A stretch of 64,000 nucleotides of DNA from NCBI GenBank assembly GCA_963930775.1, contig OZ005689.1, positions 35,046,694 through 35,110,693 of the forward strand, in the 5' to 3' direction. Below are positions 16,097 through 64,000 of this stretch, piece after piece (within the stretch, counting starts at the first letter, position 1; every line of letters begins with the position of its first letter). A program made the position numbers and the translations under genes. The notes under the pieces are model-generated. The model was not told the DNA's origin. It did not search any database and saw only the letters and a program-made list of their open reading frames with translations. This DNA is from Cliona cf. orientalis (taxonomy: Eukaryota > Porifera > Demospongiae > Clionaida > Clionaidae).

Positions 16097-16938
16097 TATG
16101 GAGATTCGAGGCCTCAACGTACGGGCGCGGCACGGCCATCAGCAGTCGACATAACAGCCAGCTCAGTAGTGACAGATAGTCGATAAATCAATAATAGCTA
16201 TACTAGTACTAGAGACTCATCGCTATTTGGCCACCTGAAAACAGCTAAGGCGAGTTAACGAAGGGCGTGGCTACTACTTTTACGCATATGCGCGAACTTC
16301 GGCACCTCCCATCTATACTTACTATAATTGCACTCATGCAATAAAAAAGAACAGAAACAATTGTAAAAACAATTGAATAAAATTGGAGGAAGTAGGGATG
16401 ACAATGCCAAAAAGTACACGAACAAGATTTTTAGGGATAAGAAATAATCACAACCACTATACATCCCTACGCTTGCTTTTTGAGTAGCATGATAATATAA
16501 AAATTATTGACAGTGAGAACATAAATTTCTCCCACATGCAATTCAAGAACACTCCAAGGATAGCATGCCTTGAATAAGTTGACATCAATAGGCCTGTAAT
16601 TATAATCAAGAAAAGCAAGCGTAGGGATGTATAGTGGTTGTGATTATCTCTTATCCCTAAAAATCTTGTTTGTGTACTTTTGGCATTGTCATCCCTACGT
16701 CCTCCTTCGATTTTATTCAATTGTTTTTACACTTGTTCGCGCATGCGCGTAAAAGTAGAAGCCACGCCCTTCGTTAACTCGCCTTAGCTGTTTTCAGGCG
16801 GCCAAATAGCGATGAGTCTCTAGTACTAGTATAGCTATTATTGATTTATCGACTATCTTTGTCACTACTGAGCTGGCTGTTATGTCGACTGCTGATGGCC
16901 GTGCCGCGCGCGTACGTTGAGGCCTCGAGTCTCCATAT
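16097..16938. repeat. Giant near-perfect hairpin (foldback element)
   Basis: The left arm (16097-16485) and right arm (16613-16938) are inverted copies, clearly above 90 percent alike by eye, around a loop of about 127 bp. The arms share GAGGCCTCAACGTACG, CAGTCGACATAACAGCCAGC and GCGAGTTAACGAAGGGCGTG, and end in the foldback signature TAGGGATGACAATGCC. The left arm has about 80 extra bases around 16297-16370. No coding capacity. Confidence 0.9.
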
Positions 16939-36235: not shown

Positions 36236-37389
36236 TTTTGCAATTTTCCACTATTCCTATAATATTGACGACCTTGCATGTATCATAATAGTAATATAGT
36301 ATACAGCACATTGGAATGCACTACTGGGGATATTCAATGTAGCACATCTAATAACATAAACACACTGTGTATATGTTCTGGTCACAACATTCTTGTTTAA
36401 TAATACGTATATAGTTACTTGGCTGCATGTAATATAATAATAATTATGAACTATCGATCCTTTAAGGATGTTCAGATAATGTTCTTTCGTCTATCCTGGT
36501 ATGCTTAGTACAAGCTTTCTTGAGATTCTTTGGTTGTGGAGTTCAACCATCTTCCACGGAAAAAAGCAAAATCGCTGTCGTGTCATTCTTCTTGTCATGA
36601 ATTTGAATTTCCCGAGCCACTTGAATGCTTCTTCGGCACATTCAGAGTTCACTCCATGAATCTCTGAGAATTCAGGTAAATGAGGATGGTAAATGCACTT
36701 AGGATTGTCGGGGGGCATGCATGTTGGCTCCTTGTGCTTGTTGCAATGCCATAGATCGACCATGAATTTCACATTTTCCAGAAGGATTTTTGCTCCAATG
36801 GAGCCCTTTTTCGTCAAATTATTGAGGAAAGGATGAACATCACATGTTCGATCATATCCCAAGTACTTCAATCTGGTCAGATCTTCCAAGCTGCATCCGA
36901 AGGTGGTGTAAACGAACACAAAATATTGAGTTGGTGATTCGCATGTGAACATCTCAGCAAAATTCACAATAATTCCACACGGTCTAACCAAGGCCATGAT
37001 GCCTGCTGTTCTGTCGTAGAGTTTGTTCACATTTGAAGCTTTCTTGCAAGCTGTGAGCACACTTTGGTCGTCATTGTCTGGTAGTGTTACTTCGTTAGAA
37101 GCCCGGCTATTCATGTACTGAAGTTCAGGTAGTGATAGGATAGGATGGATATCCGTGGTTTCCTTGTTTTCCTGAGTATGAGCAGCACAAAACTTGGATG
37201 GCTTTGCATGCTTTCCTCCTAGCACTGGAGTATCCGGGCAACACTGGACAATGTATGTTCAAGATCCTGATTTCTGAGTCTTGACCAGCCACAACTTTGG
37301 ACTTTGGTAAGGCACACATGGGTCTGGTGATCTTCTCTAGACCATCCAATGAACAATAACCTATATAAACTAGAGCTCTGTAGAGCACA

Positions 37390-38150
37390 TACCCCGTGCG
37401 CGCACATTGTGCAATCTATAGATTTACTTTCGGTGCATGCCATGATGGCTATAATTTTGTAAACTTCAGAGAAATAGAAATTAATACTGCTTGGCCAACT
37501 GGGGGTTCCAGTGACACTTGAAAAAGTGCTCTCTGCACCCAGACCATAGACTATATATTCCCCTCCCCTATGCCCAGACTAGGAAGATATGAATTTCTAT
37601 CTTTATTTTTTGTAACAATAGAAGTATAGCTGTCCTACATTATGATTGGTTCCAGATTTCAGTCACTATACATTATTTAGAACATCGACGATCTTTACCT
37701 GTCATATGCTTGGCCACTTAGTTGTGCGCATGAGCAGAAAGTATGCATATGCATTGTGGGCAGTGTCGATAGGCGTGGCTACGATGGCCAACAAACAATC
37801 ATTATTTGTGACGCTCGTGGACCGTATCCTTCGATTTCACGCATACTGAAGCCAGTTTTTCGCCGAATTCGGTTGATTCATTGTGCTTACGAGTCGCTTA
37901 GACGCCTACATCTCGAGATATGGCGATTTTTGTGCTAACAACGACGACACAACCGATTACTTTACCCCCCTTGCGCATGCGCGCGGGGTAAAAACATTCA
38001 GTAATGCATGTATGACATAGGCTGCTTTTATTAGCCTCGTTTTTAGTTTCCCTGGTCGCGATCGTAACAACCAGGGAGAGTTGGGACGAGACTATAGCCT
38101 AAGGCTGCTTTATGTACATGCCGCATTAATATTATTACCACTCTTGAAAG
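37390..38150. other. Intron region of the KDZ-like gene
   Basis: Spans from the donor at about 38152 to the next exon near 37390. It includes an inverted pair AGCCTCGTTTT / CTAGTCTCGTCC-like at about 38030-38095 and a GC-rich CGCATGCGCGCG spot at 37972. The sequence 37640-37950 is open in two frames but has no recognised domain. Confidence 0.4.
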
Positions 38151-38788
38151 TTAAAAAAACAAACCTTCACTGCATCCCAATACATGACACTTATGGTGAA
38201 TCCAGGGATTTGACTGCGATATGACTTCCCATGCTTTACCACATAAGAAATCCAAATCCTTTCTCTGTGATGGTGATGTGCCAGTAGCAAAATTGATGCT
38301 CTCTAGCTGATTCCTGTCACGGAAGAAACATACAAGAGTGAACAGAAACCAAGCATCCTCCATGCGTTTTTCCGTAAGTTTCCAAGGGTGATCAACATCT
38401 GACATAGAGCGTCCATAATCGCTGAGGTGTTTCAGTTGGGAAGAATCGGAATCACGGAAATTTTCATTGTACACCTCAGCTCGTGACTCGAACGAAGTAG
38501 CGGAGATTGATATGTTGTTAGTCAAATCATCCAGTAGCGCCACTTCAGACACCGTTTGGGAGGTAGACTGAAAATACTTCTCACTTTGTGGGATGTAGTA
38601 GTGAGTAGCATCGCCTTCATGGTAGAAACTGTAGTGAAATTTCTTTGAGCAACCTTTGCGACATTCACCATTAAATACTGCAGCTATGAAAGTTCCCTGC
38701 GTTGTATAAACAATAGGGAATGATGGTCGGCTTCGAATGATGATCGGCATTCCACAGCATTCCTTTATTGGGGGAATGAGGACAATAT

Positions 38789-39115
38789 CATAGTTGCCAA
38801 GTGTCCCGGTTTGGCCGGGACAGTCCCGGAATTTGGCCCTATGTCCCGGTTGTGTCCCGGTTTACCTGATCATTGTCCCGGAATCCAGCTCGATTATACA
38901 AATGGAGGTGTGGCACAAGCATAAACTCAGTATATTATCAAGTTTCGGTCCGTATATCTCGATGTTTAGTGGGTGTGGCAGTACACGATCGTCCGAAAGT
39001 GGGTGTGGTTGACCAAAAGTGGGTGTGGTCCGTAAATTTTCGCGCGCGCTTTGCGCGCGTTAATACTATTTTCTACTTTGTCCCAGTTTCTCTTCTTATA
39101 AACTTGGCAACTATG
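38789..39115. mobile_element. MITE inserted in the transposase exon
   Basis: 327 bp with ends CATAGTTGCCAAGT and ACTTGGCAACTATG, flanked by CAATAT on each side (38783-38788 and 39116-39121). It contains TGTCCCGG repeats near the left end and GGGTGTGGT repeats in the middle. Confidence 0.85.
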
Positions 39116-39695: not shown

Positions 39696-41518
39696 ATGGC
39701 TTCACAAGTGCTTTGCCGAAAACTTACTCCCGATTTGAAGGCAAGGATAAGCAAAGCTCAAGGAATAAAGTTGAAATGGGACGAGGTTTGCAGTCCCACT
39801 TTGCTGAAGGCAGTAGGTGCTCCCAAGGAGTATGTTTTCTTCCCTCTTCTGACAGTTTCTGCCTCCTTCATGGGAGTTAATGCACGCATTAACATAAACG
39901 ACGAATGGTGCGAGCCAGCAATTTTATGGAATGTGGTAGCAGCTAGAAAGGGTGAAAAAAAAAACTGCTGCCATGAAACATCTTTCAAGTGCTGTTGAGG
40001 TGAGTCCACAGTGATAGCTAATATATTATGGTTAAAGGTTTTACAGCTAGCTAGATTAGTTCGGAAGCCAGCTAAAATTCTGTAGCTGCAAATACTTTAT
40101 GATAACTGTGAAATAAGTGTTAACTACTATAGGTACTTGCACGGTTGTGTCAAGGTTGCAATGTATTTTAAATTGATAGAAACTGGAAAAGGAAGAAGTC
40201 AGCAAATGGAAAGTAAGAATGGCAGACGACGAGGAGTCAGCCGAGCAGAGTGAGCCTCCCCAGCTGGTTGTGCAGCAATTTTCAATGGAAGCATTGCACC
40301 ACATCATGATGGAAAACAAATGCCAAATCCTAGGCATGTATGACGAGATATCAGTGATGTACGGCCAGTTGGATGCTTATAAGCATTCAGGATCACGCCT
40401 GGATAGATCTACGCTGCTTGATCTGTACAATGGGGGATCTTGGTCCAGAAATTTTCAAAACAAGGATCAAGGAATGGTGAAAATGCAACTGACTGCATTT
40501 AACATGTGCGGGTTCATTCAACCGGCCTTCACTCTCAGTATGCTTGACAGCAGTGATCCTGATGCTTTTAACGATCGCCAATTTTTCATCTGCCCAGAGG
40601 AAGTCGAATTCATGTACTCTGACTTGAAGGTGCCAATGGATCCTACAGTGGGCAGCCTAGAAGATATCTTCAGGAGAATAAAGCACGCACATCAAGAGAT
40701 GGTAGTGTACAAATTTGATGCCGCTGCTCAGATTGCCTTCATTAAGGCACATGATGAACTATGCAGGCGAAAAATTGCTACTCCTGATGACGAAGACCAC
40801 CGAGGCATCCTAAGCAAGGCAAGAGGACACCTAGCAAGAATGGCGATGATCATTCATTCACTGGAGCAAGCAGTCACCAATCCGATGCCAAAGTATTGTC
40901 CAAATGATGATCTCACATTAGAGTCTGATTCATGGGAAGTAACAATTAAGGAGAGTTCGGTGGTCCAAGCTGAAATGATCATGAACTACGTCATTGAACA
41001 GAAATTTGCACTGATGAAGGAAGAAGTCAAGATAACCAGCATTCCAGCAGAAAGCAACATCAACACAGGTCGAGAAATTCTGGACAACAACCCGAAGTAC
41101 CTGAGCAAAGTTTTGACGTTCAAGAGTGTTGACATAGATGCCACCAACACCAAGCAGTTCAACAGGAGTCAAGCAGAACAAGTATCCAGTGGAACAGTGC
41201 AAGCATTTCATGAAGGAAGTGTCTGAAGCTGGATTTGGCACGCTGCACGAAATTCAGAGAGGTGGAAGTCTAAGGAAAGGAGTCGCCTTCCGTAAGAGAC
41301 TCTACAATGAACTTGGCGATGATCAGATTGAAACACTGAAAAAGCTGAAAATCAATGAAGAGTTGTACAACAACTCTCCGACGTCTTCACTCAATGATAC
41401 TTCAACATCGAGCAACACAACTTTCAGCTTTGGTGGTGGCAGTGACGACGACCCTCTCCCACACTCTCCTGCTACCGGCCGTACCATTACTCTGTGCACA
41501 CCAGACTCTCAAAAGTAG
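39696..41518 (+). pseudogene. DUF3987 (helicase/primase-associated ATPase-like) protein
   Basis: Divergent from the transposase gene, about 155 bp between the two ATGs. The ATG at 39696 (MASQVLCRKLTPDLK) opens a frame to LWNVVAARKGEKK, where an A10 run shifts the frame; the next part TAAMKHLSSAVE ends at a GTGAGT donor (about 40000). The second exon (about 40183 on) begins KLEKEEVSKWK and holds the DUF3987 core: MYDEISVMYGQLDAY, the Ser/Arg-rich LDRSTLLDLYNGGSW and MCGFIQPAF. Another one-base shift between about 41138 and 41226 is needed to reach the C-terminal part (GFGTLHEIQRGGSLRKG), which ends at 41518 in a Ser/Asp-rich tail. The RKGEKKTA segment stands where a Walker-A-like loop occurs, and YDEIS resembles Walker B. 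DUF3987 proteins are often linked to primase/helicase functions in mobile DNA; the role here is inference. The A-run break could be an assembly error. Confidence 0.7.
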
Positions 41519-42478: not shown

Positions 42479-42887
42479 GATCTGAGAAAAGGGACCATTT
42501 CGCGCTAAACGCGATTTTTTGCCATTTTTCAAACTGTCACCATTTCAAGGCCTCAAGAGCCCTAGGCTTTTGGCTTGGTTTATTAGCAGTTTGGACCTTC
42601 TACTTCACAGATCCAACGTTAGAAGCCTGAGCAAGCCTCCTGTCCCAAGCGGTGAGCCGCCAAAGTGAGGCATAAAACGGCGATTTTCGAGCGCGATCGA
42701 CGCGCACGCTCGCCCCGCCCCCACCGAAAGTGGGCGGGATCCGCAATTTGCGAGTGTAGTAGGATAATTGAAGAATATTCATGCTAAGTTTGAAGTTCAT
42801 AGCTGCTATGGTTCCAGAGATATAAGCGTTTTAAAATGAAAATTCGGGAATACCGCGAAATGGTCCCTTTTCTCAGATCCTGTCACA
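42479..42887. repeat. TA-type MITE hosting the KDZ-like element
   Basis: The ends read TGTGACAGGATCTGAG (left, displaced to 35790-35805) and CTCAGATCCTGTCACA (right), with TA outside both. The second layer of the ends is AAAAGGGACCATTTCGCG. Related copies lie at 60939-61358 and, one end only, near 45935. Confidence 0.85.
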
Positions 42888-42959
42888 TAATATTATGACA
42901 AAATCTGGACTTTGACAAATTTCGACCAGAACTACTAAAAACGCGCATTGTGCGCGGAT

Positions 42960-45480: not shown

Positions 45481-45934
45481 CTGGTATCTTTAAGAAACAG
45501 AACATGGCTAGCTGTGTGAAATAGTCTTTTGATTTTATCTGTAATAACAGATTGGTTTCTGCTATCCCAATATACATCTCCCATATCTTTCCTTCTTCAA
45601 CCAATTTGTCCCTTAGTTTTGTGGTGGGTATGGAGAACATCTTATCATGTACACACACAACAGTCACCTTTTTTTCTGTGAAGAGACCAAAGGCTTGGAT
45701 ACACGATTCCTTTGTTTATTAATTGTGTTTCGGCATTGGAGGGTGCTTTCTTCCAAACAACTCCTTTCTTTTCTTTTACTTTTTCATTTGGATTCGATAA
45801 ATTTTGAGCAATTTGCCGACTAGTAGTTCCATGTACTGTTTCAGACGGTAGAGCCGCTGCCTCCAGTCTTGCCCTTTTTCTATGGTATCCTTCTGTTAAG
45901 TAACCTACAATAAAAGTGAACTATATAATATGTG

Positions 45935-46260
45935 GTAGGATATGAGAAAAGGGACCACTTTGCGCAGAAAATGAATTTTCGCTACACGCGGTTTTAGTCG
46001 CGTAGGTCACAAATCCGGTAAACTCAGTTTATTGTACCATACTTAAATACGATCCTTTACCTACCTTCCTGCCAAATTTGAACCCTGGAAACCGTCGTCT
46101 TCCTCCCGAGCGAGGCCGTTCAAACGTCCACCTATCGTTCTTTCAAACGCGTGCACGGAGTTTCACCCTGAAGTGTAACCGGACAGTATAGCGGAGGGTG
46201 CACAGAGTAATGCAGGGAACCCCTTACGTAGCGCGCACGTTCATGAATAATTACTTAGCA
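45935..46260. repeat. Single end of the TA-type MITE family
   Basis: TATGTGGTAGGATATGAG followed by AAAAGGGACCACTTTGCGC matches the ends at 42887 and 60939. No matching right end was found. Confidence 0.5.
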
Positions 46261-48900: not shown

Positions 48901-51900
48901 TTAAGCAATGTGTACTTGAAAGTCATGTTGCAGCCTTTCCTTGTGGGGGGCTTCAAGCTGCTCACATATCTCGGGTGGCACTTCCATATACATTGGAACA
49001 AAGTCAGGAAAGCGTATCCATACACAGGTGGGATTGAAGTGATAATAGGCATTTCCAAAGCGAGATTGAGGTGTCTGGGAACCACTCGGGGTGTATTCCC
49101 GCCATTCCTGGTGCTTGATACAGAGATCGTCTGGAGGATTAGGATGCTTAGGATACTTGTTCCTACAGCCAGCACAAACACTTATATTTCCTGCAATCTT
49201 ACATAAAGTAAATGGAGTAGGAGGATGAAGGCTCGGGGCTCCAGCTGGGGCTGATGCAACATATGGCATGTACGGAGGCAGTACTGATGGAGGGGGCACA
49301 GGTGGAGGTGGAGGAGGAGGTGAGGCATAAAATCCCCATGGTGATTGGTAGTGAGGATGATGAGGATGTTGAGGTAGTTGAATATTTGTCTGTGTTACTG
49401 AAGGTGATTGAATATTGCTGATATGTGTCATTGGTGTAGTTTGAAAGGTTAAAGGCACAGGTGTCTGTTCAACTGATTGCAAAGTACGCGTTTCTTTTGC
49501 ACTGACCATGGCGGGATTTTCAAGCGTATTTTCTATTGCCACCGACCCCTTTCGTTTCCTTGGACATTGGCTCCCTTTGCGGCCTTTTCCTTTTGGTGCA
49601 GTTGCTTGGGCATACTTTGTCAAGCTAGGAGCCCGCTTGTTTTTCTTATACCAAGATACAAACTCTGATAGCTTCCCACACAAATTGGCTACTGCTACTG
49701 AATGTGAACAGATGCTTAAAGCCTTCCAATTAGGGCATTCATCATCACAAGCAAAGGCTCCTCCTTTTTTGGGTACAACCAAGTGGGGTTTGCGTCCACT
49801 GTAGCTCAGGACAAATTTAGCACCGTCTCCAACCCCAGGAGCTGAGACAATTGCCTCTTCTGTTTGGAGTAGTTCAGCTGCTTTACTCCATATTCCTTCA
49901 AGGCAGGTTAACGGTATCCGCACATCATCAGCAATATCATGCACACTCACAGATAATGTGGACATAGGTGAAAGATCCCGCCCAAGACATTCTGCCGCCA
50001 AAAGGGTATCTTGAGAACCTTCACCATGAGCAATATCGGATACGGATGCATTAAAGAACTTCCGGAGATGTTGCTCTCTCTGTTGGATGCTCATGACAAA
50101 CCATTTCACCTCAGGCACATGAAAGGACGTGTACTGTGGACGCAGCTCATATTTGCCTCGACCAATAATTGCTCGTTCGATCTCACGATCCTGTTCGTAG
50201 ATAAGCTGCTTTAGCTTTTCAAGAAATTCGAACATTTCACTACGCTTGTAGTTTGTTTGACTTTTCAACATGGAATTGGCAGTCTCACAGGCATTAGTAG
50301 TAAACTGGCTTGGAGGTGAACCAAGGCCACACTCTTCCCTCACTGAGCGAAGCATTGAGTCCTGAATCACAGGGACTTTATGATTCAAAAACCATGAAAT
50401 GAATCTCTCCACATTGGCAGAAGAAGGTACAGACAAGTTTCTCCACTTTTCAAGTATCTTCTCAACTTTCTCTTGAAAATCAATGCTATCAGATGCATCT
50501 ACTAGGCCCTCCACATATGTAGAACCAAATCTCTTGCCAAAGATGTCATCAATGATATCATTACCGTTTTGTGGAGGTATGTTGCATTTATGTAGCATAT
50601 CTTTGACATTTCTCTGAACGTGAATGAAGCAAGTCATATGCTGTGCAAAGCCAAACTCATGTTTGAAGGCATCCGACAAAGCCTGTTCCCCATCCGTACC
50701 TATGGCACGTACACCCTCTAGCTGCTTACATTGACCAATAACCGTCGATGCAAAGAAAAGGTAGGTTGAAAATGTCTTTCTGTAGTGAATACAGCATGGA
50801 CCAATAAAGACTGGTGGATTCTTGTACCGCTTTGATTGTAAGAGTAGGTGGCGATAGGTGATGATAGTAACATCAAAGTCACCTAAATTAAATGTGGGAT
50901 CCACAGTGAGAGGGCAAAAATCAAATGCAGTGGTGCAAAATCGAGTAACATCTTGCAGCTGGCGGTCTGTGGTGACCACAACAGCTGGTTCTGGTGCTGC
51001 GTTCACTGCTCGAACAAATTTCTTTGAAGGATCTTCTGTGTAACACTTGTGCATTATCATGAAAAGATCATCAGCGGCAGCATCTCGACTTGTACCGGGG
51101 AGGCAAGATTGCCTCTGCTCAAGTGTTACCCTTGCTTTGTAATTTGTTATCTGCTTTTCATCTCGTGGTAACTGTCCAGGAGCAATTGCCTCCAATACTC
51201 CTCCCACTTCGGCAGACAAAGATGCAACTACACTTTTGGGACCTTCTATGGCACATGCATGTTTGATATGCTTCTTGGTGCTTGACCATGTGGGATGGAA
51301 AGGTGTGGTCACTTTTGAATTACCATGACTCTTGATCACTGGAATAAAGTCTGCTGGTATATGATATGTAACCAAAGTCAAGTGATGCGGATTATTGTCT
51401 GCATCTGGAAAACAAAAATAACAATAATTATGTGATGGGTCGGAGGGTTGGCAATACCGTAGAATCCAGTGATTACACCTCCCACTTTCTGCATGCTAAC
51501 ATTGGGCAAATAGCTTGTTTATGGGATCATAATATTGTCACATAATGACCATTACCAAGCAAAAAAGCCGCAATCTTTGCACTTTCTCAGGTGGGTAAAA
51601 TGACCGTGAAAGCAAGACATGATACAATACAAATAGCTAGTGTGCTAGCTTTAGCTAATGTGTTTATTAGCTTATGAACTTGACTATTTCTTATGGGGGG
51701 GGGGGGGGGGCTTATGTGTGACAAAGTAGAGTGCAGGGGAGGTTAAATACGGAATTCAACGGAGAAATAGCGCGAGATGGCTACAAACAGCCTAATTAAA
51801 GACATGTTAATTTTATGGCATGCAAGTGGTCAAGCAATTAGTAATGTATTCCCAAGCAGCTTATATTATGTACTTATAACTAACCAGAAACAAATGCAAT

Positions 51901-54690: not shown

Positions 54691-57054
54691 ATGGAGCAAA
54701 GAAGACTAAGAAATCGTCAATAGAGGGCTCAAGAATCTACAGAACAACGTCGTCAAAGACTGGATGCTCAAAGATTGCGGGATAGTAGGAGAAGACAAAT
54801 GGAGACCCCTGAACAAGCTGAGCACAGAAGAGCTGCTCACAGAGAGGCTCAATGAAGATACAGGCAACGGTTACTAGCAAGAGAGACAACAGAGCAAACA
54901 CAGCAACGTCTAGAGCGTGAAAGCAGACGCTTGAGGCAAGTCAGAGCGTCAGAAACTGATGAGGTAAGAACACATAGACTAAATACAGAAAATTCACGTG
55001 GAAGAACTTCAAGAGCCTTAGAGTCCACTGATAGGAGGCAAACCAGATTACTTGACATGAGAATGCGTATGAGAAACAGAATACAAGTAGAGAGTGCTGA
55101 AGATAGACAAAGCAGGTTAGCTGACATGAGTACTCGCATGAGGGAAAGGCGAAGTGAGGATAGTAATGAAAGACAGGTTAGACTAGTGGATTTGAACATT
55201 CGTAGTCATGAAAGGAGGCATAATGTACAATCAGAATACAACTCCCATATACAGCAATTTGCTGCAAATAGTATAGATTTCTTTCATTCAAAATTGGCAG
55301 ACTGTACATTTAAAGAATGCTCCGTATGCTCTGAATCATTTCCCACTATGAACCCTGGTGCATTGTTACTTGAGTGTACTCGTCACAATGACAGCAAACA
55401 ACCAAAACTGTATTCTCTTGAGAATAATATGGATCCTGGGGTAGTTCCTATTGAGCTCAGAGGATTAACACAAGTTGAGGAAATGATCTCTGCAGTAATG
55501 CCCTTGATGTCAGTGTATAGATTACCTCATGGGCAGTATGGTTATAGTGGTCATGTGATTAATCTTCCTCAGAATGTCTCTTCCATTGCCACTAAGCTAC
55601 CACGATTGCCAAATGATCTTGATATACTCATAGTTACAAAAGAAGGGCAAAATGCATCCCATAAAGATTTTCATGTACGAAGGCATAAAGTCCAACAAGC
55701 ACTTCATTGGTTAAAACTTCATAATAAATACTATGCTAACATAGAAATAGATGAATCTCATATATGCCAACTGCCTATTGATGGGGAAATTGCTGTACCA
55801 ACCACTATACCTCAAATGGGTCTCTAAGTACAAGTGAACAAGAAAATTGTTTAGATGACACCTTTCTTTCTGGGACCTTCGTTCCTATGAATTTTACAAA
55901 AGGTACTGAAAAAGAGATAGTAAAAAATAGTGTTGTTGAACGTCAACAATTTCCCCACACTACTATAGCATGGCCTCAGATTCAAAACAATCCCATCAAT
56001 GAATTTAAAACTGAAGGCTATATGACATGTGCATTTCCAACACTTTTCCCCACTGGTGCTGGAGATTTTTCTCAACCGCGAATGCGTGCTGTAACAATTG
56101 GAAATTACATCAAACACTTAATGATGTATAAAGATGGGCGTTTTGCAACTCATCCTCGATTTCGCTTTTTTGCTCTAAATACTGAGATGAGATGGCGTGC
56201 TCTACAAGCAGGTAGAATCTACATCAAACAACATCCACAAGATGCCCTTTTGTCAGTTGAAGAACTAAGAGATATGGTAGGAAATGGAAGTGAAGCTTTT
56301 TCAAATAGAGTTCTTCATTTTGCAACTAGTTTACGTGGTACTCGTCCATACTGGTTTAAGCAGCGTAGTCGTCTTATTGCTATGGTCAATAGCCTTGGAT
56401 TACCTACTATTTTTTTTACTCATAGTGCAGCTGACACACAGTGGCCTGAACTTGCAAATCTAATTTGTAAAAATAATCCACAGAGCAAAGCCAAACGTAC
56501 TGAAGCTGTTATAAAAAACCCAGCAATAGCAGATTGGTTTTTCTTCCAACAGATTAAACTATTCATTAAGCATTTCTATAAAGATATACTACATGCAAAA
56601 GATTATTGGCTTCGGTTTGAATACCAACACCGCGGTAGTCCACATGTGCATGGACTAGCATGGTTAGCAGGTTCACCCAATATGGAGGATCTTGAAGTAG
56701 AAACTCCAAATCATGAAAAAAAACAAATCACAAACTACATTGATTCAATTGTCACAACTATCAATCCAGCCATTTTAATTGATGGAAGTAATCTTTCTGA
56801 AGCACCTTGTCCACAAGCTGATCCACACATATGCAATAAACCATACAAACATGTAGAAGATTTTGATACAGATTTAGCACAATTAGTAGCAATCTGCCAA
56901 AGACACACTAGATGTTCCACAGCTTATTGCCTCAAAGAGAAGAATGGGAAGCAAAATTGCCGATTTGGGTATCCTAAGGAGCTACACTTAGAAACTACTA
57001 TAGAATATTCAGATGGTGAATTAAAGCTATTAACTGCCAGAAACGATCCACTTA
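54691..57054 (+). pseudogene. Helitron Rep, N-terminal part (DUF6570 and HUH)
   Basis: The ATG at 54691 opens an Arg/Gln/Glu-rich repetitive leader with in-frame stops TAG (54721) and TGA (about 54853), then is open from 54931. It includes the zinc-like ECSVCSESF and LLECTRHND pair and the DUF6570-type block ELRGLTQVEEMISAVMPLMS followed by YGYSGHVINLPQNV. A one-base shift near 55810 leads to the Helitron_like_N domain: EGYMTCAFPTLFPTGAGDF, RPYWFKQRSRL and the HUH motif FEYQHRGSPHVHGLAWL (about 56620-56670). It ends at RNDPLI, where the TTAA element is inserted. The protein nicks and joins DNA in rolling-circle transposition. It is not translatable as it stands. Confidence 0.9.
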
Positions 57055-57298
57055 TTAACCGATTATAAGCCAAGAGGTCATGACGTCATACGTATTGCCA
57101 ACGCCGAATTGTATTCAAGAAAGTATAGTGACACAAATAAAGTGTCTTGTACAGCATAGCAGCACAGCCACACAGGCAGTACAGGCCTTCATGATATGTA
57201 AGACAGGTAGCTGCTACATTCTAGTACGCCGCTAGGGCGCTACTATACATACTATAAGCTACAAACATACACAAAAGCTTATAAGCTTACTAACCTCC

Positions 57299-57468
57299 AT
57301 AATGGCCGCCGTCTTCGAGTCGCTCCCAGGTAAGCGCTTGGCTCTGTTGAAAAGCTCGTCATATCTGTGTAGGTATAGACCTAGTGTAGCTATATACTTA
57401 GCGACAGAGCTGTAGCTCCTGCCCTGTGGTAGAAAACGTACCGCTCTCGTACCTGGATCGATCGCCAT
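57299..57468 (-). other. Possible small exon, unsupported
   Basis: A minus-strand frame from the ATG at 57468 (MAIDPGTRAVRFLPQGRSYS) ends at a GTTAGT donor-like site. Only 240 bp of element remain to its left, so a full gene is unlikely; perhaps a remnant of a divergent second gene. Confidence 0.2.
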
Positions 57469-57873
57469 TATCGTCGATCTTCACAAAAACATTTTTAGTA
57501 GCAAGCGGTAGGTTGGGCCAACCGTGACCTCACGCCACAGGTATGCAAGGGAGGCCCCCTAGTAGTCATAGACAGGAAGCCAAAGCTATGGCTTCTCGTT
57601 CTTTGGAATGTAGGCGGTGCCATAGCGCTAATATAGCTCATGTCCAGAAATATGCACTGAGAAGGGGACATCTATAGATTTGCACTATAGATTGATAACA
57701 CTAAGACTAATTAGCGTTTACAAGCACTTGACAAGCTGTTTACAAGCAATGCTCATGCAATTTACAAGCCCCTTTGCAACCTCCAGATCTAGATCTAGAT
57801 GGTAGATATGCCATCTAATTCTAATTATAAGAATCCATTCAGTTATCACCTTGGTTACTTAAAACCATAAACA

Positions 57874-60800
57874 ATGGCTGGAAATAAGCGTACCAGACCA
57901 CCAGAGGGATTCTACAGTGCTCTCAACTCCCTGTCCAGTGCTGATTTAGAATTAGATATCCCAGGACAGACGAAGCAGTTGAAGGTGCATGCAAATTTAC
58001 CAGATGGCGTATTTAGAGTAGAGAGGTTAGTGGCTCAGCGCTTGAAAGTAAGTCATCAAACTTATTATTAAAACATTAAAGGTTGATTGGCACACGTACA
58101 CGTACAAATATAATTACAATTGTGACTAGAATAAGAAACGAGAGTATTTGGTACTGTGGGAGGGTTATCCCAGAGAGGAATCTAGTTGGATTGCAGAGGA
58201 AGATATTACTTGTGCAGCTATAAGGTATGGATTTTGTAATTATACACTAAGTAGAAAAAAAAAAGAATTTAAATAATTAATGTAATTCACTGAGGACTTG
58301 GGAGCACTTGGGAAGATATTTTTTACATGGGCACGCAGAATGGGTCAAAACTAGAATTTTGATGGCAGGGAATTTTGATTCACACCTTAGAATTAAAGTT
58401 ATGGCACTTTGAAGTATTCCCATATGTTTATATAGGAAGCCATTCACTTGCAATGTTTGCCCATAAAAAAAATTACGGGCGCGCGGGGTACGTTGACGAC
58501 CCTTTACCAAACATTGTATCTATGGCTATTTGGATGCCTGCTTGCATTGTATGGCTCTACTATGCATCCAGCTCGACTGTGAGGTGGTTTTCGGACCATT
58601 TTTTTTCTGCTTAGTGTGTGGTCCCCTTGAAAAAAAAAAAAAAACATTGTGTGTCAATACTATTCCATACAAAGGTCTTTTATCACTCCAACACCCAATG
58701 AGCGAGTCATACTTGATAGTATCAGCAGTTTTCTGGATGGTGTCACCCGCAGCTTAAGAGTTGGTACCGTGAGAAACACCAAATTCACGGTGGAATTCCG
58801 TACCGATGTTTTCAGGCTCTTGTTTGGTGGAAAGGGGGAGAGAGCAAATAACGGTCGCGGGAATCTGTATCAGCTGACGGACTTCGACTCCAAGTACTTT
58901 TCTCCTGGTTGGCACCAATGTTGGGATAGGCTGGGTGATGGTTGTGAAGTGAACTTTCCTATACAGCTATATTCAACTATAAAGTATTCTCCTCTATGCT
59001 ATTCTTTAGATAGCAATGGATGTGTAGTTCCTAAGAGTAGATATTACAATGAAGGTAGTCTCTGTATTCATGCTAAAGAACCGATGTTAATGAATAATAA
59101 TAATATACACTCAAGAATATGAATTATTATTGTGCACACAGAGACACTAATTTATACACAGCTGTGCTGCTAAAATCTGTGGCATTGCAAAAATACTTGA
59201 GACACTTCAGTGAAGTGCTAACCAGGCCATGCTAGTAAACAGTGTGGGTTTTCTAATTAGCACCCACTCAAGTGCAGCTGCAGCTGCCAACAATGAGTGA
59301 TATGCAGGAGAATAGTGGAGATAAGAGCTTGCAAGCTGTGACAGTTGATTCTGTTAACCCAGATGGCATGCAGTTTTCAGACTTCAGCACATCATCATCT
59401 AAAGCTATTCTTTCGCTTCGTATGACAAATAGGCACCTAAAGGAATGGGCTAAAACTAAATCTTCCAACAGTGAGATGTCATTCGTATGCCAGCTAAACC
59501 AGTGTGTTGATGGGAATGTTGTCAAAGTTGATGAACAGTGTGCACGCATAGAGAAGTGTCTTTCTGGTAAAGCTCGCAAGATCAAGGTTGACCTGAAGAA
59601 GAGCTCAGGTAAAACCTACCAGAAGATTCTAGAGCAGCCTTACAACCTTTTTATTCTTGATGGTGAACTGGAATCATTTGAAAAGATCACTGAAGAACGG
59701 GACATGGCACTACTAAGGGCAGCAGAATGGAGAGAGGCAGTACATCAGCACAAAGATGAACTTAGTAACTTACTGGAAGAGATGGCACGGGACACTGTCA
59801 CATTTTTGGATGAATTGGAGCTACAATCTGCACAAATAGCGGAGCTGAGTGAAAAAGGAGTAGTGAACAAAGGAAAAAAGATTGATGAAGTCTCACCTCG
59901 CCAAGCTCGTCGGAAGGTTGCTCATGTCACCACACTATCCAAACAGGCACTATGGTTCGCTCATTCTTTTGGGCTTGAACCAGAGTTTGTGCAGTTCAGG
60001 AAGGTAGCTACAGGCTCATCACTAGCAGTACACCTTAATTAGTGACGATCCCAGGAGTGACACACCCCCACAGCCTACAGAAGATGACAAAGAGCACATA
60101 CTGCAGGTGCTATATCTCCTTGACAAGTTTGCTGTCAGTGACGAGCTCTACCATGAGTTGCGAATGTTGTGTCCTCATCTTCCAGCCTCAAATCGAGTCA
60201 AACAGGCCCGCAAAGAGATCAATGAGCTTCTCGAATACACACAGCTATCACCTCCATATCCTGGTGCGTATAGGTCTTTCAAGGCAACTCTGGTGGAAAA
60301 GATCTCAAAAGCTGTAAGTAATTTCATCAGCTTTTCCTTAGGATTCATTGGTGGGGAGGGGTGTTTACTGGGAAGGGAGGGGTCTGAATGGACCCGGGGC
60401 CAGGGAGTAGGGATGCTCCAGATGTGTAAATATAGAATAGGGAGACAGAGAAGGCACAGGGTAACTACATGTAGTATGTGGAGGCGACTTCAATTAAATG
60501 TGTACCTGCACAATAGATGGAATCACAATCAGAGCTCTTCCCCGACGGATGCACAATTAGAGTCAAACTCAGTGGAGATGGAGCGAGATTCTCCAAATCG
60601 TCCAATTTTATCCTCCTCTCTTTTTCCCTCCCGGTCATGAAGTCTGAAGTATTATCAGGAGCAGGTTAGAAGAGAAGTAAACAATTGTACATCAATGGGG
60701 GTTCAATACCATAACAATGCAGGAAATCACACTGTATCAGTAATTAAAGGCGAGGAGAGCTATGAAGCCCTGGAATCATTCAAGCCTATTCTAGACGACA

Positions 60801-62635
60801 TCAACAACTTGGTACAGAATAACAAAATTGAAATAGCTGGAAAGTCATACTCGCTAGAGTTTTTTCTTGGAGGCGATTATAAGGTATACACAATACATAC
60901 TGGATGTACATCTACTATGACATACTACAATAATAATATGTGAGCGGATTTGAGAAAAGGGCCCACTTCGCGCAAAACGCGAATTTTTGGCACTTTTCAA
61001 GCTGTCACCACGCAAAAACTATAAGAGCCTTAGGCTTCTGGCTTGGTTTTTAAGCAGATCAGGCCTTCTACTAAATATATCCAACGTTAAAGAGTCCGGC
61101 TAAGCTCCTGTCCAAAGCACTGAACGCTTGAAGTGAGGCATAAAACGGCCGATTTCGAACGCGATCGATACGCGCGGGCGCCACGCCCACACCGGATGTG
61201 GGTGGGGCGCGAAATTTACAGCGAGTGTTGACTAATGACTGAAGAATGTTTGCTTCAAGTCTGAAGCTCATAGCTACTGTAGTTCAGAAGTTATGCGCGA
61301 TTTAAAACGAAATTTCGGAAAATGCGCGAAGTGGGCCCTTTTCTCAAATCCGCTCACATATTATAATAATGTGCATACAGTATCTGCTCATGATTCTCGG
61401 CCTAAGCACAGCAATTTCCAACTACTCCTGCGTATGGTGCCATATCCACAAGGATAAACGGTAACTAAATTTATTGCAACACACATAGCAGTACATACAA
61501 CAAAAACTTACTTTTTAGATACATGTCAATACCTATGGAGGAATACACAGAAAGAAGGGTTTGTACACAAGAAACCCTAAAGAAATGCAGTAAATTGCCT
61601 TCTTCTAGACCAGCCAAGGAGCGACTAGGATCTCAACATTCTCCTTTAATCTCTATCGATGCGGATCACATCGTCTTAGATGAACTCCACCTACTCCTGC
61701 GGGTCCTAGACATTCTGATACGCAATCTCATCTACGAAATGGTCCGTCTCGATACATACGAGAGTCAGAGAGCTTCTAGGTCCAGGTCAGCATCCGTTAC
61801 ACACCTTCAGCAGTTTATTAGCACTGTTAGAGAGTGTGGTCTCTCTTTCAATGTGTGGGAGAAGCAGGATGGTGATAGGAAACCAACTGGTAAGTACGAA
61901 TGGACGTCTCTCACTGGTAGAGAGAAGAAACATCTCTTGGCTACCCTTCCCGACAAGTTGCTTCCACTTTTGCCAGCAGATTTAGCGTCAACCGTATGTC
62001 AGCTCTGGAAAGTACGTAAATAACACAATGTCATAATATACATGCACCATATCACTACACAACTGATACATACAGGATTTTGAGACGCTCTACAAGCTAA
62101 TAGCTAGGTGGACTTTGACAGAGGATGAAGTGAAGTCAGTACATACAAAGGTATAATCTACCCGACTTTAACAACTATTATTCTAATCTTTTTCTATAAT
62201 ATATATTAAGGCAAAAGAGTGGGTAAACCTGTTTTTGACCCTTTCTGGCCGTTGTGAGGGTCACCAAAAGAGAAACATTACACCCTATATGCACGCGATG
62301 GTGTACCATGTACCTGATATGATGAAACGCTTCGGTAATGTCAAGCAATTCAGTGGTCAAGGTGCGTCAACATACCTTTATGTTTATCTGTACATCTACA
62401 TCTATATACCTTTTCAAATGAATCAGGAGTTGAGAAGAATAACGATGATGCCAGGCGGAATTACCGGTCAAGTAATCGGTGGGATGCTGCTGTAGAGATC
62501 CTTAAAACAGAATTCAGGCTGGAACAGGGTCGTGAACATGAGAGAGCACACCGGCAGTACACCAAGCGTAACCATGAGTACTGGTTTGGGGGTGGGATTC
62601 AAGAGGAAAGGAGAAAAAGGCAGAGACTACAATGA
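57874..62635 (+). CDS. Chromodomain protein, putative TTAA transposase
   Basis: Exons: 57874-58047, 58130-58224, 58675-59054, 59273-about 60040, 60041-60313, about 60647-60883, 61380-61460, 61522-62010, 62076-62151, 62212-62360 and 62428-62635. Phases agree at the joins checked. There is a one-base break near 60030-60041, either a frameshift or an unseen splice. The chromodomain spans exons 1-2: FRVERLVAQRLK, then REYLVLWEGYPREESSWIAE. A coiled/helical middle follows (59600-59860). C-terminal blocks: FFLGGDYK plus YLLMILGLSTAIS with a zinc-like CVWCHIHK; IDADHIVLDELHLLLRVLD; TPYMHAMVYHVPDM; QFSGQG/VEKNNDDARRNY; RNHEYWFGGG. I read D (GGDYK), D or H (DELH) and E (GVEKNNDD) as a candidate RNase-H-like catalytic set. 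Homologous blocks recur in sponge and cnidarian genomes as I recall. A chromodomain could guide insertion to methylated histone marks. Transposase identity is inferred from being the only large gene in the element. Confidence 0.75.
60939..61358. mobile_element. TA-type MITE in the chromodomain-gene intron
   Basis: 420 bp with ends TGTGAGCGGATTTGAG and CTCAAATCCGCTCACA, TA on both sides. The interior is about 70-75 percent like 42487-42887 (CGCGATCGA, AGTGAGGCATAAAACGG). It is a third-level insertion: MITE in TTAA element in Helitron. Confidence 0.9.
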
Positions 62636-62804
62636 TATCATACTCCACTGATATAGCTAAAATTTATTGCTCATGATTGTGATGCAACCTAAGTATATCT
62701 CACCTCAAATTTTACTTTATACAACACTTTCACACCTCTACTATAGTTTGGTAGCTCACATAGAACTTTCATCGCCGAGGGAAGGCACTGCACTGCTTCG
62801 CTTG

Positions 62805-63014
62805 TTAGTTCTGCAACTCCATCAGAGGTACGATTCTAAATAACGCACACTCAAAAAGCGCTGCGTCAGCAATAATTGCCATGTGCTCTGCGGGAGTAAA
62901 GTGAAATTCTTCAACTTTGGCCCCGAATGGAAGATCCCCACGGGAGCCCCCCAGAGTTGAAAAAGTGATAATTTGAAATTCCAACCCTTCGAGTGTATAA
63001 TTGGATCGGTGCAA
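62805..63014 (-). other. Open minus-strand stretch, unassigned
   Basis: Frame from 63014 includes LEGLEFQIITFSTLGGSRGD and FTPAEHMAIIADAALFE, ending in a stop at 62805. It has protein-like composition and could be the last exon of a second gene of the TTAA element. No upstream exon was confirmed and no domain recognised. Confidence 0.3.
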
Positions 63015-63456
63015 GTAGGAAGTTAATACGGTAAGTACTTCAAAAATTAAATTAGAGTAGGCTGGTCTTGCATGCTTTGCCGGAAGCCCATATGTTTATA
63101 TGGAGAAGCGTACGTGCTGAAGTAGCTACAAAGATAGCATGATGGAAGAGGTCAGATGACATGAGTTGAAGTGTTTCTCGATGTGGATAGGCACTAAAAG
63201 AGATACTGTTTATGACTGAATCGGTGCAATTGGGATTGTCGCCGTTCTTCGATGGTTAGTACAGTGATGAAATTTTATCTCCATATACGGCCAATACATT
63301 TGGTAGGCATACGTAACACGGAATTATTGATTAGTATACGGACGAAAGCTGGCACCATGTCCGCGTATTTCTGGACATGTGTACTGACGCCAATTGGCGT
63401 CAACGGCGGTTCGCGCGCATGACGCCAATTGGCGTCAATGGCGTATAATCGGTTAA

Positions 63457-64000
63457 TAGTTACAACCCACTTCAATTGTCAGCATGGAGAGCAAATGTAG
63501 ATATGCAGTACTGTGTGTCTCGCCGCAAGGTTATAGAATACTGTGCTAAATATGCAACTAAATCAGAACCTAGATCAGAGCCTCTCAAATTGGTCTATAA
63601 AAACATTGTAAAACAACTAGCAGACCAAGATAAGCCATTAAAAGCAGTACAGAAATTACTCATCAATAGAGTGTAGGTGAAAGGGATTACTCAGCACAAG
63701 AAACATGCCACTTATTGCTCCAACTGCCCTTATACATGGCTTCAAGAGATTTCGTTATTCTTAGTGTAGATGGTACCCGTATGGTTCAGGATCAGTTAAA
63801 TGAAGATAGCCCTGCCACAGCCTTATCCATAGTTGATCACTACAGAAACCGTCCAAGAGAGTTTGAGCATATCACATTACTTGACTTTGTACAGAAATAT
63901 ACCATGCCTCGTGGTCAAGCAAATGACCCATCACTTAGAACTAAGGAAGTTGTGGTCATTATTAAACCACACTATGGTCCTCATTATGAAGACTATTGTC
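63457..64000 (+). pseudogene. Helitron Rep continued: catalytic Tyr pair
   Basis: Resumes the Rep frame immediately after the TTAA: SYNPLQLSAWRANVDMQYCV, then the paired-tyrosine motif VIEYCAKYATKSEPRSE (about 63526-63560; two Tyr four residues apart), the active-site tyrosines of Helitron Rep. A one-base shift near 63670 separates KAVQKLLIN from ERDYSAQETCHLLL. The frame then stays open to the window edge (SVDGTRMVQ, DFVQKYTMPRG), heading into the linker before the helicase, which must lie beyond 64000. Confidence 0.88.

What the first reader, a model, noticed from the sequence alone, without database searches (positions are those of the whole stretch)
57059..63452. A complete 6.4-kb TTAA-duplicating transposon built around a chromodomain gene
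Both ends, both TTAA copies and the restored host frame are visible, so the boundaries are exact to the base. The single large gene starts with a chromodomain and ends with conserved blocks (FFLGGDYK, DELHLLLR, GVEKNNDDARR). The only TTAA superfamilies I know, piggyBac and Kolobok, do not match what I see. It may be a new superfamily or an undescribed chromodomain lineage.
Basis: partly seen in the sequence, partly recalled or inferred. Interest (0 to 1): 0.88.

Follow-up and report, generated by a model that had tools for sequence, protein, structure and literature searches.

The report
TTAA transposon with RAG1-like transposase
A 6.4-kb jumping gene in what is probably animal DNA inserts at TTAA and carries a chromatin-reading (chromo) domain plus a cutting enzyme that resembles RAG1, the enzyme that rearranges our antibody genes, a combination I did not find described.

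Summary
A 6,394-bp element (57059-63452) with 12-of-13 inverted ends and a TTAA duplication interrupts a Helitron-like frame; removing it with one TTAA restores that frame. Its spliced gene begins with a chromodomain (Pfam E 2e-11). The core's best Pfam match is RAG1 (E 0.0085, below Pfam's cut-off), and 15 of 18 PDB hits are RAG1 (best E 0.012); reversed and shuffled controls give none. The E962 block aligns well; the D708 block only weakly, but in order. Together they put the element's residues on RAG1 D708, C727/C730, H937/H942 and E962: the C(2)C...H(4)H...E signature of the EnSpm-Mirage-Chapaev-Transib (CMCT) clade, whose members mostly end CA..TG, whereas this element ends CCG..CGG. Most likely it is a cut-and-paste DDE transposon of a divergent CMCT/RAG1-like lineage with TTAA targeting and a chromodomain. 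It matches no piggyBac model and is probably not Kolobok. Membership in Sola3 (recalled as TTAA-specific) could not be tested and is the main threat to novelty. The copy has a frame break near 60026-60042. No relative was found, but no animal collection could be searched.

The parts
57055..57058 (.). left TTAA target-site copy
   Evidence: sequence
63453..63456 (.). right TTAA target-site copy
   Evidence: sequence
57059..57071 (+). left terminal inverted repeat CCGATTATAAGCC
   Evidence: (I3)
63440..63452 (-). right terminal inverted repeat (12 of 13 identical)
   Evidence: (I3)
63385..63437 (.). two copies of the 18-bp palindrome TGACGCCAATTGGCGTCA just inside the right end; the left end has a TGACGTCA palindrome at 57081; possible transposase-binding sites (inference)
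   Evidence: D7, I5; single-strand DNA fold z -5.69 right end, -0.97 left end
57874..58047 (+). exon 1 of model: start codon, beginning of chromodomain
58130..58224 (+). exon 2: most of the rest of the chromodomain (Pfam Chromo, E 2e-11 on exons 1-3)
58675..59054 (+). exon 3: no further Pfam match
59261..60042 (+). exon 4, first part (acceptor 59261 joins in frame with donor 59054): no Pfam match at E<=1; frame ends at 60042
60026..60042 (+). frame break: upstream frame stops, downstream coding continues in another frame; I saw no canonical splice that explains it
60026..60313 (+). exon 4, second part, in the shifted frame
60517..60664 (+). core exon with SGDGARF, proposed first catalytic D
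   Evidence: role inferred, not aligned to RAG1 by a tool
60723..60883 (+). core exon ending FFLGGDYK, second catalytic D (aligned to RAG1 D708)
   Evidence: weak stretch
60930..61367 (.). unrelated inverted-repeat MITE inserted in the intron
   Evidence: (I1)
61381..61460 (+). core exon with CVWC (aligned to RAG1 C727/C730)
   Evidence: weak stretch
61519..62011 (+). core exon with DELHLLLR: insertion region between D and E
   Evidence: single-sequence fold of low confidence, mostly helical
62076..62150 (+). core exon, insertion region
62211..62361 (+). core exon with HAMVYH (aligned to RAG1 H937/H942)
62427..62635 (+). last core exon with GVEKNNDDARR; E aligned to RAG1 E962; stop codon
55782..57068 (+). 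host gene interrupted: Helitron_like_N frame (continues 63457-63676)

Best explanation
It is one copy of a cut-and-paste DNA transposon of the RAG1/Transib-like (CMCT) group of DDE transposases, belonging to a divergent lineage that targets TTAA and carries an N-terminal chromodomain. The encoded transposase would bind the inverted ends, cut both with the D-D-E RNase-H-like centre stabilised by a C2-H2 zinc site, and join them 4 bp apart across TTAA. The chromodomain would tether it to methylated-histone chromatin and so bias insertions towards repeats. Shown: borders, TTAA duplication, host-frame restoration, chromodomain, and an alignment that puts six residues on RAG1's catalytic and zinc residues. 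Inferred: fold, chemistry, zinc binding, target bias, first catalytic D. Not shown: activity; this copy has a frame break and is probably dead or mis-assembled.
For: Borders and empty site. Chromo E 2e-11. RAG1 is the best of 3 Pfam families at E<=10 for the spliced core (0.0085) and 15 of 18 PDB sequences (best 0.012; the 15 are versions of one protein, not independent). With the insertion region left out of the query, 15 of 15 hits are RAG1 (best 0.00072, designed). Reversed and shuffled cores gave 1 and 2 hits, none RAG1, best E 0.47 and 0.8. Two stretches align in order; on the printed coordinates core D101, C120, C123, H347, H352, E372 fall on RAG1 708, 727, 730, 937, 942, 962, the residues named as catalytic and zinc-binding for mouse RAG1 in PMC4914335 (passages). 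C(2)C and H(3-4)H between second D and last E are the shared motifs of the CMCT clade in PMC12730594 (passages).
Against: E-values are marginal and below Pfam's gathering score (14.7 versus 25 bits). Exon by exon, RAG1 scored only 0.28 and an unrelated family, Tra1_central, scored 0.0029 on the DELHLLLR exon, also below its cut-off. The D708/CxxC stretch is weak: -3.0 to 1.3 bits in the 5 alignments printed and 3.8-4.6 in the 2; the first 130 core residues alone found nothing in the PDB (0 hits). No relative was found, so no profile or tree could be built. CCG..CGG ends are unlike the CA..TG ends of most CMCT lineages. One copy only: TTAA specificity rests on a single insertion.
Confidence: 0.78

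Rival explanations
1. It is a member of Sola3, an already named TTAA-duplicating group of the Sola superfamily, and the RAG1 resemblance is a property of Sola not stated in what I could read.
For: I recall (no call) that Sola3 makes TTAA duplications; Repbase lists Sola1-3 as distinct subgroups of one superfamily (PMC4455052, passages).
Against: None decisive. I recall the Sola abstract as describing DDD transposases unlike any known; here the third residue is E, aligned to E962. The defining paper is not held, and I had no Sola sequence to compare.
Confidence: 0.22
2. It is a Kolobok element (TTAA-specific), with the RAG1 match a coincidence of shared RNase-H features.
For: TTAA duplication; Kolobok is reported from sponges; Kolobok shares a C/DxxH motif between second D and last E (PMC9587614, passages), and CHIH, DADH and DELH in this core fit that loose motif by letters.
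Against: Kolobok ends are given as 5'-RR..YY-3'; here CC..GG. The C(2)C/H(4)H pairs with RAG1 spacing are the CMCT signature. No Kolobok sequence was available for comparison.
Confidence: 0.06
3. It is a piggyBac element with a divergent transposase.
For: TTAA duplication and ends beginning CC.
Against: No piggyBac family among the Pfam matches listed up to E 10 (the tool says matches above about 0.1 are mostly dropped) nor among the PDB hits, although piggyBac structures exist (PMC7351741, abstract start in search listing). piggyBac ends carry CC[C/T]T (PMC2872659, passages); here CCGA.
Confidence: 0.02
4. The transposase belongs to a DDE superfamily unrelated to CMCT, and the RAG1 match arose by chance.
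For: Marginal E-values; weak D708 stretch; N-terminal part without hits.
Against: Six functional residues in register, two stretches in order, clean controls.
Confidence: 0.11

Closest known systems
RAG1 and Transib transposons
   Same: RAG1 D708-C727-C730 and H937-H942-E962 blocks align with identical spacing inside each block; Transib itself was not among the hits
   Different: Transib makes 5-bp duplications and CAC-type ends (recalled); this element uses TTAA and CCG ends and has a chromodomain
CMCT clade (EnSpm/CACTA, Mirage, Chapaev, Transib, Plavaka, ESTA, Lanisha; PMC12730594, passages)
   Same: C(2)C and H(3-4)H motifs between second D and last E; duplications of 2-5 bp
   Different: Most members end 5'-CA..TG-3'; that text has no 'TTAA' and its only 'chromo' is 'chromosome' in a reference
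piggyBac
   Same: TTAA duplication
   Different: No sequence match; ends CC[C/T]T versus CCGA
Kolobok
   Same: TTAA duplication; loose C/DxxH fits
   Different: 5'-RR..YY-3' ends; sequences not compared
Sola3
   Same: TTAA duplication (recalled)
   Different: Not comparable with the tools held
Chromoviruses (chromodomain Gypsy retrotransposons; recalled)
   Same: Chromodomain attached to a DNA-joining enzyme of the RNase-H fold (inferred here)
   Different: Here N-terminal and on a TIR-bounded DNA transposon

Membership tests
CMCT / RAG1-like DDE transposases | C(2)C and H(3-4)H between second D and last E | tested here: met
   CVWC at core 120-123, HAMVYH at 347-352, between D101 and E372; that D101 and E372 are catalytic is inferred from the alignment
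CMCT / RAG1-like DDE transposases | significant profile match to a member family | tested here: inconclusive
   Pfam RAG1 E 0.0085, 14.7 bits versus cut-off 25; PDB RAG1 E 0.012
CMCT / RAG1-like DDE transposases | 2-5 bp target duplication | tested here: met
   4 bp, TTAA, one copy
CMCT / RAG1-like DDE transposases | 5'-CA..TG-3' ends (most members) | tested here: not met
   ends are CCG..CGG; the source says 'in most cases' and gives TGT..ACA for PlavakaA
Transib | 5-bp duplication and CAC ends (recalled) | tested here: not met
   4-bp TTAA, CCG ends; not filed as Transib
piggyBac | piggyBac transposase domain | tested here: not met
   no such family among the Pfam matches listed
piggyBac | TTAA duplication | tested here: met
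Kolobok | 5'-RR..YY-3' ends | tested here: not met
   CC..GG against the description
Kolobok | C/DxxH between second D and last E | tested here: inconclusive
   CHIH, DADH, DELH fit by letters but the motif is loose
Sola3 | Sola transposase similarity | not testable with these tools
   paper not held; no Sola sequence at hand
Chromodomain protein | Pfam Chromo above cut-off | tested here: met
   44.1 bits versus 25.1 on spliced exons 1-3

The most novel reading that the evidence does not exclude
An undescribed superfamily-level lineage of RAG1/Transib-type transposons that switched to TTAA targeting and gained a histone-reading chromodomain, so that RAG1's relatives include a TTAA-specific, chromatin-guided branch in an early animal.
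Probability: 0.4. Interest if true: 0.75.

Novelty: new variant of a known kind. Interest (0 to 1): 0.6.

Why it matters
RAG1 arose from a Transib-type transposase. A RAG1-like enzyme with TTAA targeting and a chromodomain would widen the known range of that family, and would test whether seamless TTAA excision (known for piggyBac) can evolve on a RAG-type active site, which hairpins the flanking DNA. It would also be a DNA-transposon counterpart of chromodomain-guided retrotransposons.

Tried and rejected
Rejected: piggyBac (no profile match); Kolobok as first choice (ends wrong); a two-gene reading of the chromodomain and middle parts (acceptor 59261 joins in frame with donor 59054; not proved by transcripts); a short intron across the frame break (none seen that keeps the frame; judged by eye). 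Led nowhere: protein scans of viral contigs (8 pattern matches, 0 confirmed) and bacterial/archaeal genomes (30 pattern matches, 0 confirmed), phage records (no match), NCBIfam (0 families). None of these holds animal genomes, the scans find close relatives only, and no metagenome scan was allowed, so 'no relative' says little. In the window, tblastn found only the element and three hits at E 1.9-8.7; the end pattern has one further match, with two mismatches, at chance level. The 17-base end pattern matched 3 viral contigs, which I take for chance without having computed it; a motif pattern gave 35 more, another 0; none of the 38 fetched loci gave a tblastn match at E<=1. A GGDYK pattern found nothing in the window, as expected since an intron follows GGDYK. 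Folding one exon alone was uninformative (pLDDT 51.5). Literature: ten searches; in the listings I saw titles and abstract starts only, and four lists were cut (20 of 43; 20 of 902; 15 of 57; 15 of 660). No listed title or abstract start described a chromodomain-bearing TTAA transposon; that is no proof of novelty. Not held: the Sola paper, Yuan and Wessler 2011, Kapitonov and Jurka 2005; what I say of them is recalled or taken through other papers. Passages of PMC5199201 and PMC8634313 did not state Sola3's duplication.

Full report
Observation. The element spans 57059-63452 (6,394 bp) between TTAA copies at 57055-57058 and 63453-63456. Its ends read CCGATTATAAGCC and CCGATTATACGCC, 12 of 13 identical (I3). 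Among 13,435 TTAA pairs 0.5-12 kb apart in the window, 3 have at least 11 of 13 inverted matches, one of them 13. So the ends alone could be chance; the empty site settles it. Flanks plus one TTAA restore a continuous frame in a gene whose upstream part carries Helitron_like_N at E 7.1e-37. The end pattern has one other match in the window, with two mismatches, at chance level.

Gene. A model with GT-AG introns gives exons 57874-58047, 58130-58224, 58675-59054 and 59261-60313 (frame read to 60042, then another frame from 60026), 60517-60664, 60723-60883, 61381-61460, 61519-62011, 62076-62150, 62211-62361 and 62427-62635 with stop: 11 exons. No transcript supports it. The first three exons give a chromodomain at E 2e-11, 44.1 bits against a cut-off of 25.1. 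The part up to 60042 has no other Pfam match at E<=1. At 60026-60042 the frame breaks; I saw no canonical splice that bridges it, so it is a frameshift, a sequencing or assembly error, or decay. The host Helitron frame also appears to break at about 63676 and near 55800, which fits either old decay or indel errors. A 438-bp inverted-repeat element sits in the intron at 60930-61367; a related copy lies at 42479-42896 (75%) and a related end at 45924-45979.

What the enzyme is. The spliced core (534 aa) matches three Pfam families at E<=10; the best is RAG1 (E 0.0085; 14.7 bits, cut-off 25), the others Tra1_central (0.015) and PSI_Plexin-B (0.042). Exon by exon, before splicing, RAG1 scored 0.28 on one piece and Tra1_central 0.0029 on another, all below their cut-offs. 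Against 177,635 PDB sequences, the 438-residue core gives 18 hits at E<=10, of which 15 are RAG1 (best 0.012); the other three are two S6 ribosomal proteins and NUP58. The 15 are versions of one protein and count as one line of evidence. Leaving out the insertion region gives 15 of 15 RAG1, best 0.00072; that query was designed. Reversed and shuffled cores yield 1 and 2 hits, none RAG1. The first 130 core residues alone yield none.

Register. In one search the core stretch 335-386 aligns to 925-975 of the 1,040-residue chain 9jpu_A and to 544-594 of mouse chain 5zdz_A, an offset of 381, taking the full-length chain's numbering as residue numbering. On that offset core H347 and H352 fall on 937 and 942, and E372 on 962; this is the strong stretch. 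In the other, weak stretch (-3.0 to 1.3 bits in the five alignments printed), core D101, C120 and C123 fall on 708, 727 and 730. These are catalytic (D600, D708, E962) and zinc-binding (C727, C730, H937, H942) residues of mouse RAG1 as listed in PMC4914335 (passages). The first catalytic D is inferred to be in SGDGARF (core D21); no tool aligned it.

Classification. [quoted passage not shown] The element meets the motif and duplication length but not the usual ends. ESTA was likewise recognised in that paper through RAG1 similarity. Kolobok, also TTAA-specific, is described in PMC9587614 (passages) with RR..YY ends and a C/DxxH motif; the ends do not fit, the motif fits loosely. piggyBac ends carry CC[C/T]T (PMC2872659, passages) and no piggyBac family was matched. 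Sola3 is recalled as TTAA-specific; it could not be tested.

Mechanism. Inferred: the transposase pairs the two ends, cuts with the D-D-E centre and joins them at TTAA with a 4-bp stagger. The right end has two 18-bp palindromes TGACGCCAATTGGCGTCA (63385-63402, 63420-63437) that can pair as single strand (z -5.69, 0 of 200 shuffles as stable), and the left end has TGACGTCA at 57081 but no unusual fold (z -0.97); these may be binding sites. RAG and Hztransib leave hairpins on the flanking DNA (PMC6941560, passages), so precise TTAA repair would be unexpected. The chromodomain suggests guidance by methylated histones; insertion into a Helitron is one anecdote in keeping with that.

Limits. One copy; no relatives in the virus, phage and prokaryote collections searched, none of which represents animals; no whole genome, no tree, no fold of the full core. 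The CMCT placement is likely but rests on marginal scores made credible by residue register and clean controls. Novelty is uncertain because Repbase and the Sola paper were out of reach.

Noticed in passing
60930-61367; 42479-42896; 45924-45979: A separate inverted-repeat MITE (58-bp arms, 88% complementary, GTGAGCGGATTTGAGAAAAGGGCCC...) with a 75% copy and a further related end elsewhere in the window.
   Followed up: partly
36491-38861 (-): Frames matching KDZ transposase (E 8.3e-5, below cut-off) and the CxC5 cysteine cluster associated with KDZ transposases (E 1.9e-9).
   Followed up: no
54856-57068 and 63457-63676: Host gene of the insertion: DUF6570 plus Helitron_like_N, with apparent frame breaks near 55800 and 63676.
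   Followed up: partly
48901-51495 (-): An 864-residue open frame with only a weak MULE transposase match (E 0.0029, below cut-off).
   Followed up: no
40180-41226 (+): Frame matching DUF3987 (E 1.1e-22), a family I recall mainly from bacteria.
   Followed up: no
16230-16800; also 6228, 19515, 33897: Long inverted repeat containing TTAACGAAGGGCGTGGC, whose end motif recurs with two mismatches at three other places (none expected by chance).
   Followed up: no
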